Shown: one piece after another, positions 32,974 through 54,188 of the stretch
Layout of the letters: the number at the start of each line of letters is the position of its first letter
Position numbering within the stretch: position 1 is the stretch's first letter
NCBI GenBank assembly: GCA_030065755.1
Contig: JASJDA010000010.1
Span: 1-54,212 of the forward strand
Direction of reading: 5' to 3'
DNA length: 54,212 bases
From: Prochloraceae cyanobacterium
Lineage (GTDB): Bacteria > Cyanobacteriota > Cyanobacteriia > Cyanobacteriales > JASJDA01
Position numbers and translations under genes: made by a program
The notes under the pieces: model-generated
Told to the model about the DNA's origin: nothing
What the model saw: only the letters and a program-made list of their open reading frames with translations
Databases searched by the model: none

Positions 32974-33002
32974 AGCATTACAAGACAAAAAATAACGAAC
33001 AA

Positions 33003-33226
33003 CTATTAGTTAGTTTACCCCTTCGTAAACCCCCCAGGACTAGACTGCTCAACTCAAGCGGTCTGTACCCCTATACGCTTCATTCATTTCTCGGAAGTTA
33101 CACCGGAATAGCGTATAGGGGTGCTAGACCGTACAGTCGCGAGCAGACTAGTGATGCTTGCTCTAGCTTAACTCACAGACGGCGATCGCACCGTCCAAAT
33201 TGCAAGGTTGTTTCCCTAACTAATAG
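33003..33226 (+). repeat. Structured repeat element, copy A
   Basis: A 224-bp element closed by an 11-bp perfect inverted repeat (CTATTAGTTAG, 33003-33013, with 33216-33226). Inside: hairpin GTTTAC/GTAAAC, and ACTAG (33039-33043) pairing with CTAGT (33148-33152). This encloses a long arm with a 13-bp perfect stem, ACCCCTATACGCT (33067-33079) with 33110-33122, plus CGGTCT/AGACCG and GACTG/CAGTC. A 3' hairpin GACGG (33178-33182)/CCGTC (33191-33195) follows. A related element is at 34258-34519. No coding capacity is evident. After the closing stem comes CCTTTTTCTT. It could be a structured RNA or a non-autonomous mobile element. Confidence 0.8.
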
Positions 33227-33395
33227 GTGTCCTTTTTCTTACTTCTAGGGAAGTAATATTGTATTTTCTAAGTACTTCTGTATCGTAATCTTTTTAGTTT
33301 CTTTCGTCAAGTGGGTCGATCGTTTTTTTATTTTTCTGAGAAAAGAAAGAAAATTACACGCTTAAAATTGTCAAGAGGAAAGAAACAGGGTTGTT

Positions 33396-33890
33396 CTATA
33401 CTAGACTTGCGTAACCGAAACTAACGTTAAACTGTTTGCACCAAATTACTACGGATTGAAAGTCATCGATGTTAACATTACTAGGTATAGCGTAACGTTG
33501 CGCGCCTTTAAAGCTCTTAATACGAGCTAAAGTAATGTAATCGCCTCCATTTAATTTGACTGGTACTTGAGAATTGCGGTGAAGTAAGACTCGAACTTGA
33601 GGACCTGTAGCCGTTGTAAAAGCGTGATTGAATTCTACAAAACGTTTCCCATCTTCCTCAACAATTCTTGCTTGTCCCTTAGTCGGTTTTTCTTGTTCGA
33701 CGGTAACGAAATTTCCTTCTCGAAGTACATTTCGACTAGCACTTTTTAGACTTATCAATTCTGTTTTTGCTTCACTGCGAGAAATTTTATCCTCCATTTT
33801 TGCTGTGCTAGGAAGAATGAAAACTGTTCCTAAAGCGACAGTGGTAAGTGTTCCTACAATAGTTGCTGCGGTTAATTTGTTAAGTTTCAT
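33396..33890 (-). CDS. DM13 domain protein, exported
   Basis: A 164-aa protein with an N-terminal signal-like segment (IVGTLTTVALGTVFILPSTA) and a single DM13 domain from about residue 55. Family features are GPQVRVLLH, ARIKSFKGAQRYAIP and the C-terminal SVVIWCKQFNVSFGYASLV, with one conserved cysteine. DM13 domains are proposed to act in redox reactions at the cell surface or in the periplasm; no activity is proven. It is flanked on both sides by copies of the structured element. Upstream, 641 bp separate it from the SWIM gene's stop. Confidence 0.85.
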   Translation of the reverse strand: MKLNKLTAATIVGTLTTVALGTVFILPSTAKMEDKISRSEAKTELISLKSASRNVLREGNFVTVEQEKPTKGQARIVEEDGKRFVEFNHAFTTATGPQVRVLLHRNSQVPVKLNGGDYITLARIKSFKGAQRYAIPSNVNIDDFQSVVIWCKQFNVSFGYASLV

Positions 33891-34257
33891 AGTTGGTAGC
33901 TCCTTGAATGTTTCTTAATTCGTTTCTTAATTATTAAGATCCACTTTTAAACTGAGAAACCTATGAGGAGTTTCTGAGGAGCTACTTGAAAAAGAATAAG
34001 AAAATTAATTTTTTAGACTCAACGAGATTTAAGATCGGATAGAAGCGATCGCCCCTAATATCAAGCTTTTTCTAAAGCAGACGTTTCAAAATCTAACTCG
34101 ATCGCGCCCTCGAAATTAGGTTTGGCTGTAATATTGTTAATGCTATAAATATTTAATAAGCCACATTAATAATGTCCTCAATTTGTTGTGGCTCGATCGG
34201 ATTATTTGCAGTTAAAAAATAATACAGAAATAGAAATCGGGCAATAAAAGTTGTGAG
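33891..34257. other. Gene-free stretch upstream of the DM13 gene
   Basis: This stretch holds the DM13 promoter region on the minus strand and A+T-rich DNA up to structured element copy B. GAGCTACC and AGGAGC segments just before the DM13 start look like its ribosome site. No further gene or repeat is seen. Confidence 0.5.
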
Positions 34258-34519
34258 TGGTTAGTTAGTTTTCCCTTCGTAAACTTCTAAGGACTAGACG
34301 GCTCATCTCCGCGAAGCCACCCCCTCGCTCAACAATTAGAGTCATTAGGTTTATGAACCTAGCAACTACAGGTATTTTACCATTACGGTTTGGAAACCCA
34401 AACCGCAATACTCAGGTGGCTTCGCTGAGTAAAGAGACGACTAGTGATGCGTGTTGGAACTCAGTACGCAGACGGCGATCCACCGTCCATAATTCGCAAG
34501 GTTATCAACCAACTAACCA
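34258..34519 (+). repeat. Structured repeat element, copy B
   Basis: A 262-bp relative of the element at 33003. The closing stem is TGGTTAGTT (34258-34266) with AACTAACCA (34511-34519); several bases differ from copy A yet pairing is kept. The shared core is CCCTTCGTAAAC, GGACTAGAC, GACTAGTGATGC, CAGACGGCGATC, CACCGTCCA and GCAAGGTT. ACTAG (34293-34297) again pairs with CTAGT (34441-34445), and GACGG (34471-34475) with CCGTC (34483-34487). The inner arm is different: an 11-bp stem (34311-34321 with 34415-34425) encloses hairpins at 34346-34361 and 34386-34405. Same orientation as copy A. Confidence 0.8.
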
Positions 34520-34531
34520 AGTAGTCTCAAC

Positions 34532-36172
34532 TTAATATTGACGATTATACTGCATTCGCAGTGCGAGAATGTGTTCGCAAGGGCCTTTGTACAGCTTATT
34601 TTGCTGGTGCCAGTTACAACTACATTCTGCTTGTATAATACGCTCGTCAGCATCTACAGTCAAGGAGGGGTTAAAGATTCTTTGCTTGTCGGAGACACTT
34701 CCTTTGATTATGTAAGTGCGATCGCTATCTCCCGTCACTGAAGTTACTTTTACTTTGTTGTACTCCAAAAAACGAGTAGCTTTTTCTTCCCTTTGGTTAG
34801 CAAAACGCAACCTATCCATTGGTAGAGGTTCGCGACTCAATTCTCTCACGCGATATACTTGCTTGTTAAGGTCGTAAATTGCTCGTCCTGCTTGGGTATA
34901 TGCGCCTAAAGCACCCAATACAACAGCGCGGTTAAGATTGAGACGTTTGGCAAGATCTTCGGGAGTTTCGAGCCAATTTTGCTTGAGTGCGTCGAATATT
35001 TGTTGAGAAGTCCAGCGATCGATCTGCGCGCGAGGTGCCATAAGATCGAAATTACCGGAGTTAGACCAATCATTAGCAGTCCATCCCGACAAACCGAGAG
35101 TAAAGGACATATCCCCCAGATCGGCGACGTAAAATGAAGGCAGACCCGTACCGAGAAGGTGGACGGTAAACTTCTTAGCGATCGGGATGAGTCTTTCTAA
35201 AATGTGGATGCGACGACGACCCCAGACGCGAATAACCTGTTCAGTAGAACCAATATAGAGCGATCGAGGACAAACTAATTCTGTTTCCCAGGGTTCAAAG
35301 ACTACTTTTATTGGTTCTCCTGGTTTGAGATGATAGCACATTCCTCGCGGCCCTTTTTTTTCTTTATGGCGACGTAGAATAAAACATATATTGTAAATAT
35401 CCATAGGATGTAGGTCGAAGCGTGTCGCGGGTAGAGACATCGCAGAAGAGACTTGTAAAAACCCTCTCACCCAACTATCTGGCAGATCGATTTTGACTTC
35501 TTTATAGGTCTCTTCGTGAGTGGTTTGGACTTCAAAACCGGAAGGGTCTACTTGAAATTGAGTTGTTTTGTAGGTGCGGATTTTTTGAAACTCGTCGTAG
35601 AGTGCTGCTGAATAGTCTATATTGGTCGTACCGCAGGAAAATTCGCTGATATTTTTGAAGACTTCGTAACTCGCACCCAGTCTTCCATAACTAGACTCGT
35701 CCTGACTGAAACACTCGAAAAATACTTCGTCGGGATGGACTGTGATAACTGGATCTAAAACAAACCAAGCATCGTAGTCTCGCTTATAAAGGTAATTGTA
35801 ATAGCTGCGTTGTGCTTTGTAGAAAGGTTCTCTGCGCTTGTAACTATTGCGGTTAAGTGCGTTTAATTCTTGTTGTAGGGTTTGGATGCGATCGGTTACT
35901 TCTTTGCTTTGTGCTGCTACCAATTGCCAGTCTATATCGTCTTGTTTGGCGCGCCATTCTTTATATTCGGTTCGATCTTTTGGTTTGAAGCGCAGATCGG
36001 AAACAACTACGTCGTGTAACGCGCTAATTGCTTCGCGAAAGGCGATCGGTTTGCTCAATTCTCCGATAAAGTATGTCGGTTGGCGCTTGGTATCGGGAGA
36101 AAATGACATTTGAGTGTTTGCACCACTTTCGCTAACAGCAGTGCTTCCTTTATAAGAGTAGTTAAATTCCAT
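34532..36172 (-). CDS. SWIM zinc-finger protein
   Basis: A 546-aa protein with a C-terminal SWIM finger: CSC and then CEH, in the pattern CxC-x(n)-CxH (AECSCNWHQ ... GPCEHILALR). SWIM domains bind zinc and mediate DNA or protein contacts. The rest (residues 1-500) has no recognised catalytic motif; residues around 385-440 resemble a helix-turn-helix (TPEDLAKRLNLNRAVVLGAL). A 57-aa gene lies 26 bp upstream on the same strand. Related SWIM genes occur in bacterial gene sets with MoxR/VWA proteins, but none are present here. Function unknown. Confidence 0.78.
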   Translation of the reverse strand: MEFNYSYKGSTAVSESGANTQMSFSPDTKRQPTYFIGELSKPIAFREAISALHDVVVSDLRFKPKDRTEYKEWRAKQDDIDWQLVAAQSKEVTDRIQTLQQELNALNRNSYKRREPFYKAQRSYYNYLYKRDYDAWFVLDPVITVHPDEVFFECFSQDESSYGRLGASYEVFKNISEFSCGTTNIDYSAALYDEFQKIRTYKTTQFQVDPSGFEVQTTHEETYKEVKIDLPDSWVRGFLQVSSAMSLPATRFDLHPMDIYNICFILRRHKEKKGPRGMCYHLKPGEPIKVVFEPWETELVCPRSLYIGSTEQVIRVWGRRRIHILERLIPIAKKFTVHLLGTGLPSFYVADLGDMSFTLGLSGWTANDWSNSGNFDLMAPRAQIDRWTSQQIFDALKQNWLETPEDLAKRLNLNRAVVLGALGAYTQAGRAIYDLNKQVYRVRELSREPLPMDRLRFANQREEKATRFLEYNKVKVTSVTGDSDRTYIIKGSVSDKQRIFNPSLTVDADERIIQAECSCNWHQQNKLYKGPCEHILALRMQYNRQY

Positions 36173-48959: not shown

Positions 48960-49089
48960 CAATAACTCTCTTTTGTCACGGTTAACGTAGAATCGATAGA
49001 CGACTGCCAAGCGAAGCTGAGTAGGAATATGCCTGTCGTGCTGGAACTATTACTCCCTTGCATTTTGGCAAATCTATCCCTCGAAATAA

Positions 49090-49117
49090 AAAACCTCAGT
49101 TTGATAGCTGAGGTTTT
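49090..49117. terminator. Bidirectional terminator after flotillin
   Basis: AAAACCTCAG (49090-49099) pairs perfectly with CTGAGGTTTT (49108-49117) around an 8-nt loop. A-run and T-run edges allow function in both directions, for the flotillin message and for pgr5 on the minus strand. Confidence 0.75.
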
Positions 49118-49238
49118 GTATGAGGAGAAATTTAATGTCAATGGGAGATACCGATGCTGATGTTAGAAAAAATCTATCTTAAAAGTTTTTGTTAACACTT
49201 ACGCATAGAAATTCAATCTGCTCGTAATCCGATAAAAC

Positions 49239-52637: not shown

Positions 52638-52886
52638 GTCAGCACCCCGCACTCTTCGTGACGGGGCTTCGTGCCTCGAAACAATAGTTAGCTGACCAGC
52701 TTAAGCTCTTTTTAGAACTACGTTATTGGCAAGAGTTAAAGACCTACCTTGGAATGCGTGCCAGTTTCAAGCTCTAGAACCGAAAAGTTAAACAGTTGTA
52801 CGAGGGGTAAAACAGTGCTTTTTGGATAGTACCGACCAATAACTTTAGCGAGGCAAACATTACACGAAAGTAGAAGAGACAAAACC
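52638..52886 (+). ncRNA. Probable IscB omega-RNA (HEARO-type)
   Basis: The 249 nt directly upstream of iscB are rich in pairing. GTCAGC (52638-52643) pairs with GCTGAC (52691-52696), enclosing a strong hairpin, CCCCG-CAC (52645-52652) with GTG-A-CGGGG (52658-52666). Further on, GCTCTT and AAGAGT segments can pair. IscB proteins use an RNA encoded just upstream of their gene, with the guide at its 5' end; position and size fit. Boundaries are inferred, not measured. Confidence 0.7.
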
Positions 52887-54188
52887 ATGTCTAACTTTGT
52901 TTTTGTTCTAGATACCAACAAGCAACCATTAACTCCTTGTACTCCAGGAATGGCTCGTAGCTTGCTAAAAGCGGGTAAAGCTGCGGTATTTAAACAGTAT
53001 CCATTTACAATTATTCTTTATAAGGTAGTCAACAAACAAGAAGTTAAACCATGCCTACTTAAATTAGACCCAGGTAGTAAAACCACAGGGTTAGGAATCT
53101 TGCAAGGGAACAAGCTTATCTGGGCTGCTGAATTAACACATCGCGGACAACAAATAAAAGACGATCTAGAATCGCGTCGTTCTTTGAGAAGAGGTCGTAG
53201 GACTAGAAAAACTAGATACAGACAACCTAGATTTCTCAATAGAACCAGACCAAAAGGTGGCTCTGCTCCTAGTCTAGAGCATCGGGTTTTAACTACATTA
53301 ACTTGGGTAAATAAATTAATTAAATTCTGTCCTATTAATTCAATAGCGACAGAATTAGTCAGGTTTGATACTCAGAAAATAAACAATCCTGAGATATCAG
53401 GAACGGGGTATCAGCAAGGAACACTCTATCAATACGAAGTTAGAGAATACTTGTTAGAAAAGTTTAATCGTACCTGTGCTTATTGTGGTGTTAAAGATGT
53501 TCCTTTAGAAGTTGAGCATATAGTACCCAAGTCAAAAGGTGGAAGTAATCGAATATCTAACTTAACTATTGCTTGTGTACCATGTAATCAAACTAAATCT
53601 AACAGAGATATTAAAGACTTTTTAGCAAATAAACCATCTTTGCTTCATCGAATATTATCCCAAGCCAAAGCTCCATTAAAAGATGCCGCAGCAGTTAACT
53701 CTACTCGTTGGAAATTATTTAATAGTCTTAAAGAAACTGGTTTACCTGTAACAACTGGTACGGGAGGACAAACTAAGTTTAATCGCACTACTCAACAACT
53801 AGAAAAACGTCATTATTTGGATGCTGCTTGTGTGGGGAATACTCCTGATTTAGAGATACTGACCCAACAACCATTACTAATAAAATGCGCTGGTCATGGT
53901 CAACGACAAGTTATTCATGTCAATAAACATGGTTTTCCCAGACTAAACAAAACAGGAACCAAGGTGAGAAAAGCAGCTTTAATTAAACAAGTTAAAGGCT
54001 TTCAAACTGGAGATATTGTTAAAGCTGTTGTCACTCGCGGAAAAAAAGTTGGTTCTTATTTAGGGAAAGTAGCTGTTAGAAGTAGTGGGTCATTTAATAT
54101 CAAAACTCTAAACGAAACAGTACAAGGAATTAGTTATAAATACTGCATTTCTATACACCGAAAAGATGGTTATGTTTATGGATTTTAA
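52887..54188 (+). CDS. iscB: RNA-guided nuclease IscB
   Basis: A 433-aa IscB, related to the ancestor of Cas9. The PLMP domain is at the N-terminus (residues 1-45). RuvC-I has D61 in KLDPGSKTTGLGI, and an Arg-rich bridge helix follows (SRRSLRRGRRTRKTR). RuvC-II has E156 in IATELVRF. The HNH domain has C197-C200, H211 in EHIVPKSKGG, and C230-C233. RuvC-III has H309 and D312 in KRHYLDAACVG. All catalytic residues seem present, so the enzyme is probably active. The gene stands alone, with no transposase in the window, and is preceded by a probable omega-RNA. Confidence 0.95.
   Translation: MSNFVFVLDTNKQPLTPCTPGMARSLLKAGKAAVFKQYPFTIILYKVVNKQEVKPCLLKLDPGSKTTGLGILQGNKLIWAAELTHRGQQIKDDLESRRSLRRGRRTRKTRYRQPRFLNRTRPKGGSAPSLEHRVLTTLTWVNKLIKFCPINSIATELVRFDTQKINNPEISGTGYQQGTLYQYEVREYLLEKFNRTCAYCGVKDVPLEVEHIVPKSKGGSNRISNLTIACVPCNQTKSNRDIKDFLANKPSLLHRILSQAKAPLKDAAAVNSTRWKLFNSLKETGLPVTTGTGGQTKFNRTTQQLEKRHYLDAACVGNTPDLEILTQQPLLIKCAGHGQRQVIHVNKHGFPRLNKTGTKVRKAALIKQVKGFQTGDIVKAVVTRGKKVGSYLGKVAVRSSGSFNIKTLNETVQGISYKYCISIHRKDGYVYGF

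What the first reader, a model, noticed from the sequence alone, without database searches (positions are those of the whole stretch)
33003..34519. Two related structured elements with a conserved core and interchangeable arms flank a DM13 gene
Copies A (33003-33226) and B (34258-34519) lie in the same orientation. They share short blocks (CCCTTCGTAAAC, GGACTAGAC, GACTAGTGATGC, CAGACGGCGATC, GCAAGGTT). In each the ends pair: 11 bp in A and 9 bp in B, with different bases but preserved complementarity. ACTAG/CTAGT and GACGG/CCGTC stems are present in both. The central arm differs completely: one long hairpin in A, a multi-branched arm in B. Kept pairing with changed sequence points to selection on structure. 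It fits no RNA family I can name. It could be a structured ncRNA, a non-autonomous mobile element, or both.
Basis: partly seen in the sequence, partly recalled or inferred. Interest (0 to 1): 0.75.

Follow-up and report, generated by a model that had tools for sequence, protein, structure and literature searches.

The report
Split retron with two template RNAs
The two elements look like template RNAs of a retron, a bacterial reverse-transcription system usually linked to phage defence; here the reverse transcriptase lies elsewhere in the genome, and the two RNAs carry different template arms.

Summary
A and B belong to the RNA family that accompanies type XIII retrons (RT + SWIM + WGR/HEAT proteins). 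The SWIM_XIII gene lies 7 bp from B on that strand. A covariance model from 34 relatives finds strong matches in 59 of 291 genomes of the order; the full-length RT_XIII is in exactly those 59. RNAs near an RT (39 of 39) or SWIM (47 of 47) share its strand. Ten non-cyanobacterial records hold the RNA with SWIM, nine with the RT. Unusual: in this genome and 30 others the RT is not within 6 kb, and 22 of these 31 assemblies hold enough sequence to exclude a contig break there. Eleven of 59 genomes carry two RNAs; in four, this one included, one has a longer arm of a shared type. The SWIM protein is predicted to hold a PCNA-like clamp domain, at mixed confidence. No transcript or msDNA was tested.

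The parts
33001..33230 (-).
   Evidence: R1 match 195.4 bits, E 4.9e-54; A is one of the 34 sequences in the model, so this match is by construction. BLASTN with B alone gave 58 of 291 genomes.
34255..34524 (-). Copy B: second retron RNA with a longer, branched arm; B was not used to build the model
   Evidence: R1 match 118 bits, E 2.5e-31; long arm shared with G061, G003, G275
33216..33226 (-). a1-like 5' end of A (pairs with 33003-33013)
33003..33013 (-). a2-like 3' end of A
34507..34519 (-). a1-like 5' end of B (pairs with 34258-34270)
34258..34270 (-). a2-like 3' end of B
33202..33207 (-). Conserved CCTTGC of A (CCTT pairs AAGG near the end stem); its G (33203) is the inferred priming guanosine
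   Evidence: CTTGC in 64 of 64 relatives; role inferred from the rule in PMC6868368 (passages)
34496..34501 (-). Conserved CCTTGC of B; inferred priming G at 34497
   Evidence: role inferred
33177..33196 (-). msr-like hairpin of A (GACGG/CCGTC)
   Evidence: helix 2: 8 pairs, 99.2% of cells paired, 5 pairs changed on both sides
34470..34488 (-). msr-like hairpin of B
33039..33152 (-). Arm of A from ACTAG to CTAGT: inferred msd template, long hairpin
34293..34445 (-). Arm of B from ACTAG to CTAGT: inferred alternative msd template, branched
34532..36172 (-). SWIM_XIII protein, 546 aa, upstream of B on the same strand; residues about 134-366 predicted sliding-clamp-like
   Evidence: PADLOC SWIM_XIII E 2.8e-246; Pfam SWIM
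33396..33890 (-). DM13 gene between B and A; probably a passenger
   Evidence: another gene lies at this place in G061

Best explanation
A and B are the template/primer RNAs of a type XIII retron whose parts are scattered in this genome. SHOWN by computation: both are homologous, structure-conserved RNAs, most likely on the minus strand, beside the SWIM_XIII gene; one intact RT_XIII (contig C250) and one intact WGR_XIII (C317) lie elsewhere in the same genome; strong RNA matches and the full-length RT occur in the same 59 of 291 genomes; outside cyanobacteria the same RNA sits in loci with SWIM and RT on one strand. INFERRED: the RNA is transcribed with or after SWIM; its ends pair (a1/a2); the RT, acting in trans, binds the conserved core and primes on the invariant G of CCUUGC; it copies the arm into msDNA, so A and B would give two different msDNAs; the RNA-DNA-RT complex holds or licenses the SWIM (clamp-like) and WGR/HEAT proteins as sensor and effector, probably in phage defence as in other retrons.
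For: PADLOC names the three proteins RT_XIII, SWIM_XIII, WGR_XIII at E<1e-190 (that XIII means retron type XIII is recalled). RNA (E<1e-20) in 59 of 291 genomes, RT_XIII (>=630 bits) in the same 59, Fisher 3e-63; SWIM in 58 of the 59, WGR in 58 of the 59. 39 of 39 RNA copies within 6 kb of an RT and 47 of 47 within 1 kb of SWIM are on the gene's strand. Ten non-cyanobacterial records: SWIM in the held stretch in 10 of 10, RT in 9 of 10, WGR in 5 of 10; over the 65 RNA-bearing loci all 110 RNA-to-domain-hit pairings within 3 kb are on one strand. Covariation. End pairing: own ends -22.5 kcal/mol, permuted -12.2, none of 5000 permutations as low. RT has NAxxH, YADD and VTG invariant in 18 of 18 aligned, own genome included. 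Own RT and WGR have no internal stops.
Against: In this genome the RT is not near the RNAs: C182 holds 33 kb beyond A without it. The CAGC-type priming motif of other retrons is AACC in both A and B; 39 of 64 relatives have AGC there, so the priming G is uncertain. No transcript or msDNA was seen. The strong/weak cut-offs were set after seeing gaps in the scores. G137 has RNA and RT but no SWIM or WGR match (82% complete genome), G188 has SWIM and WGR but neither RNA nor RT, and G090 and G179 have WGR alone of the proteins. RT_XIII-like proteins of 450-530 bits without any RNA match exist in 5 of 291 genomes (G037, G059, G147, G160, G206), and two weak RNA matches (G179, G213) lack the RT.
Confidence: 0.92

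Rival explanations
1. Decaying remnant: A and B are orphan RNAs left behind when the retron was broken up, no longer used.
For: RT and WGR are on other contigs; both copies lack the AGC motif; copy B scores low (118 bits).
Against: RT, SWIM and WGR have no internal stops. Terminal stems of A and B are paired with different sequences. RNA copies within 170 nt of an RT also lack AGC (G232, G197, G275). RT and RNA occur together in all 59 genomes with a strong match, including 22 where they lie apart with contig breaks excluded.
Confidence: 0.12
2. Structured 3' element of the SWIM mRNA with a regulatory role, not a reverse-transcription template.
For: 47 of 80 RNA hits lie within 1 kb downstream of SWIM, 40 of them within 57 nt of the end of the SWIM profile match.
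Against: RNA follows the RT where SWIM is absent: six genomes with a divergent RT and no SWIM_XIII have a weak RNA match within 400 nt of it (G108, G110, G127, G190, G208, G280). Closed ends, msr-like hairpin and variable arm are retron-like.
Confidence: 0.04
3. Non-autonomous transposon (MITE) or IS end.
For: Two copies, terminal inverted repeats.
Against: No other copy found in an 8.46 Mb genome; position beside SWIM kept across families; compensatory changes inside stems; no match in 72,556 plasmid records.
Confidence: 0.01

Closest known systems
Type XIII retrons (known here from the PADLOC models RT_XIII, SWIM_XIII, WGR_XIII; Mestre et al. 2020 recalled, not readable here)
   Same: Same RT, SWIM and WGR/HEAT families; RNA with closed ends, short hairpin and long arm; SWIM-RNA-RT order on one strand outside cyanobacteria
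   Different: RT not within 6 kb of the RNA in 31 of 59 genomes, RNA often linked to SWIM instead; two RNAs with different arms in some genomes. I could not check whether this was already described
Myxococcal-type retrons (Mxa1, Sau1)
   Same: AGC just before the core in 39 of 64 copies, as CAGC is reported for those retrons; the review groups cyanobacterial retron RTs with them (PMC6868368, passages)
   Different: Other accessory proteins; RNA beside the RT (recalled)
HEARO/omega RNA with IscB
   Same: Structured RNA beside a gene; one lies in this window
   Different: No match of A or B to RF02033; partner gene differs

Membership tests
Retron (type XIII) | RT of the retron clade with NAxxH, YADD and VTG | tested here: met
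   Own genome RT (C250:9085-10506) and 17 relatives, all invariant; RT_XIII 650.9 bits
Retron (type XIII) | Template RNA whose 5' and 3' ends pair | tested here: met
   A 11 bp, B 13 nt at 92%; permutation test on 50 relatives
Retron (type XIII) | Priming guanosine at the inner end of that stem | tested here: inconclusive
   Invariant CTTGC in 64 of 64 gives a candidate; the common AGC is in 39 of 64 and not in A or B
Retron (type XIII) | msr-like hairpin and long msd-like arm | tested here: met
   Helices 2, 4, 5, 7 with covariation
Retron (type XIII) | SWIM and WGR/HEAT partners | tested here: met
   SWIM beside B; WGR on C317
Retron (type XIII) | Usual but not defining: RNA immediately beside the RT | tested here: not met
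   Not in this genome; within 6 kb in 28 of 59 genomes and in the same stretch in 9 of 10 non-cyanobacterial records
Retron (type XIII) | Production of msDNA | not testable with these tools
   needs wet-lab work
HEARO/omega RNA (RF02033) | Match to the covariance model | tested here: not met
   No match of A or B even at E<=10; 21 hits elsewhere in the genome
MITE/IS | Dispersed similar copies in the genome | tested here: not met
   Only A and B
DNA sliding clamp (SWIM protein residues 134-366) | Two-domain clamp fold | tested here: inconclusive
   Predicted models only: VIA Z 12.3, 179 aligned, 6.0 A; residues 120-389 alone, one domain well modelled, clamp rows at Z about 11 and mostly 2.3-3.0 A over about 110-120 residues, the other domain below pLDDT 50. 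Mean pLDDT 59.7 and 56.7

The most novel reading that the evidence does not exclude
A trans-acting, two-template retron: one reverse transcriptase copies two RNAs encoded far away, which share its recognition core but carry exchangeable arms, giving two kinds of msDNA that are read by a sliding-clamp-like SWIM protein and a WGR/HEAT protein. Dispersal arose repeatedly, so the parts work without a shared operon.
Probability: 0.35. Interest if true: 0.8.

Novelty: new variant of a known kind. Interest (0 to 1): 0.6.

Why it matters
Retron RNAs are commonly sought beside the RT. This family suggests that they can sit beside an accessory gene with the RT elsewhere, so RT-anchored searches would miss them. 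The covariation-backed RNA gives type XIII retrons a testable template, offers a candidate priming site, and provides natural pairs of RNAs with a shared core and different arms for asking what the DNA part senses. A clamp-like SWIM protein, if confirmed, would suggest a link to replication or to DNA ends.

Tried and rejected
Rfam: no family at gathering score for A or B, and the matches up to E 10 are miRNA/snoRNA families that I judge chance. HEARO: rejected. MoxR/vWA/bpX conflict systems suggested by SWIM: a listing and passages of PMC7159879, which hold no mention of WGR, gave no link. Mobile element: rejected. Viral carriage: one pattern match in viral contigs, not confirmed by the model. 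AGC as general priming site: not general. SWIM protein against PDB by sequence: nothing below E 0.15. In the two VIA lists the 50 rows shown are clamps, plus one designed protein that ranks first in the second list (8w97, Z 11.7); other folds are not excluded. I first took G015's second RNA for B-type because of its length; it has an enlarged msr hairpin and not the B arm. G-U against A-C counts as strand evidence are weak: the structure folded on the plus strand also has more G-U than A-C, 71 to 10.

Full report
OBSERVATION. Rfam 15 has no family for them at gathering score and only chance-looking matches up to E 10. In the 8.46 Mb genome of the window only A and B are found.

A CONSERVED RNA. 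BLASTN with B alone gave matches in 58 of 291 genomes of the same order. Thirty-four relatives of A length, A included, were aligned and made into a covariance model, R1. On 65 matches in the fetched loci, 95.8% of paired cells are standard pairs against 84.5% in shuffles, 28 of 40 pairs have changes on both sides, and sliding the structure by 1-3 columns leaves 32-48% paired; this alignment was fitted to the model and leans towards it. In 50 sequences the two ends of one RNA pair at -22.5 kcal/mol on average, against -12.2 when ends of different RNAs are combined.

STRAND. The consensus fold is better on the minus strand (-38.05 against -32.34 kcal/mol). The stronger evidence is position: 39 of 39 copies within 6 kb of an RT and 47 of 47 within 1 kb of SWIM share the gene's strand. 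On the minus strand of the window the order is SWIM, B, DM13, A.

WHAT IT IS. The gene 7 bp from B is SWIM_XIII; recurrent neighbours in other genomes are RT_XIII and WGR_XIII, which I take as the proteins of the type XIII retron (class name recalled). Across the same 291 genomes the RNA (E<1e-20) and the full-length RT (>=630 bits) occur in the identical set of 59; 58 of the 59 have SWIM and 58 have WGR, and one further genome has SWIM and three have WGR. The cut-offs were chosen after seeing gaps in the scores. Eight further genomes have weak RNA matches (E 4e-13 to 6e-4); six of them have a divergent RT within 400 nt, upstream of the RNA in five and downstream in one, and no SWIM/WGR_XIII. 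In a scan of 84,980 species genomes, a pattern from the core gave 70 stretches; with one viral stretch, 65 of 71 have an R1 match at E 5e-8 or better; the pattern lies inside the model, so the weakest of these are partly circular. Ten of the 65 are titled as Anaerolineales, Desulfobacterales, Blastocatellia (2), Undibacterium (4), Burkholderiales and Bacteroidia. All ten have SWIM in the held stretch and nine the RT (in the Bacteroidia record the contig ends at the RNA); five have WGR, four end before the place where it would be expected, and one Blastocatellia record (L191) has none in the 4.1 kb held beyond SWIM. In the Anaerolineales record SWIM lies about 4 kb from the RNAs. Of the 65 RNA loci, 56 hold at least one component; the six unconfirmed stretches hold none.

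DISPERSAL. In 28 of 59 genomes an RNA lies within 6 kb of the RT; in four it is on the same contig but 28 kb to 5.7 Mb away; in 27 on another contig. Of these 31, contig lengths were known for 28, and 22 hold at least 6 kb beyond the RNA on the side where the RT would be; the other nine may be assembly breaks. On an RT tree of 66 rows the linked/far state needs at least 10 changes, 5 of them forced by well-supported branches (a quick tree with some long branches, and the nine unsure cases were counted as far). In the window's genome the RT is on C250 and the WGR protein on C317, both without internal stops.

TWO RNAs. Eleven of 59 genomes have two strong RNA matches. In G000 (A and B here), G061, G003 and G275 one of them has an arm of 145-154 nt with shared blocks; G187 has a 103-nt arm with similar blocks. 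In the 5' core, the two copies of one genome are 75% identical on average (0.73, 0.88, 0.87, 0.66, 0.64) against 67% between genomes; in the arm they are 47%, against 60% among the four long B arms and 65% among A arms. So the core tends to follow the genome and the arm the type, on only five pairs, two of which do not show it in the core.

MECHANISM. By the general retron scheme (PMC6868368, passages read) the ends pair, a guanosine at the inner end of that stem primes, and the msd arm is copied. Here CCTT can pair with AAGG near the end stem and is followed by a G that is invariant in 64 of 64; I take it as the likely priming site. The commoner AGC motif is in 39 of 64 and in neither A nor B. 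That the RT acts in trans, that two msDNAs form and that SWIM and WGR act as sensor or effector are inferences.

SWIM PROTEIN. An AlphaFold2 model (mean pLDDT 59.7) matches PCNA and bacterial clamps at residues 134-366: Foldseek best E 1e-5, VIA Z 12.3 with 6.0 A over 179 residues. A separate model of residues 120-389 (mean pLDDT 56.7) gives one clamp-like domain at high confidence, with clamp rows at Z about 11, mostly 2.3-3.0 A over about 110-120 residues; its first row is a designed protein, and the other half is below pLDDT 50. Sequence search against PDB shows no relative. This is a predicted fold, not a function.

LITERATURE. Searches for retron with type XIII, SWIM, WGR, cyanobacteria, in-trans RNA and sliding clamp listed no paper whose title or abstract describes this RNA, a dispersed type XIII retron, or a clamp-like retron protein; some searches found more papers (48, 6,113 and 1,313) than the 20 that each listed. 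The paper that defines the types is not held, so the RNA may already be predicted there or in PADLOC's own RNA models (PMC9252829, passages read).

Noticed in passing
window 52638-52863 (+) and 52887-54188 (+): HEARO/omega RNA (Rfam RF02033) directly before a 433-aa ORF that looks like IscB (name recalled, not scanned); 21 HEARO matches in the genome at E<=0.001, 14 over the gathering score.
   Followed up: partly
window 49089-49176 (-): PsrR1 photosynthesis regulatory sRNA (Rfam RF02701).
   Followed up: no
L150:6910-8987, L153:7157-9225 and the like (G108, G127, G190, G208, G280): Divergent RT_XIII-like proteins (open frames of about 590-625 aa), with TPR repeats at the N-terminus in the one scanned (G108), and a weak match to the same RNA 200-360 nt downstream of the RT, in genomes without SWIM/WGR_XIII: a possible sister retron type with the RNA after the RT.
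   Followed up: partly
L088, L091, L103, L104 between RNA and RT: An NYN-domain gene and an RNase III gene sit between the retron RNA and the RT in four genomes of one group (one of each scanned by Pfam, the others by sequence cluster).
   Followed up: no
L175, L190, L207, L210: RT_XIII of Undibacterium and a Burkholderiales record is 622-650 aa, longer than the usual 465-480 aa; Pfam sees only RVT_1 in the one scanned (L210).
   Followed up: no
L193:2684-3177: Tandem pair of the retron RNA directly before the RT in an Anaerolineales record.
   Followed up: no
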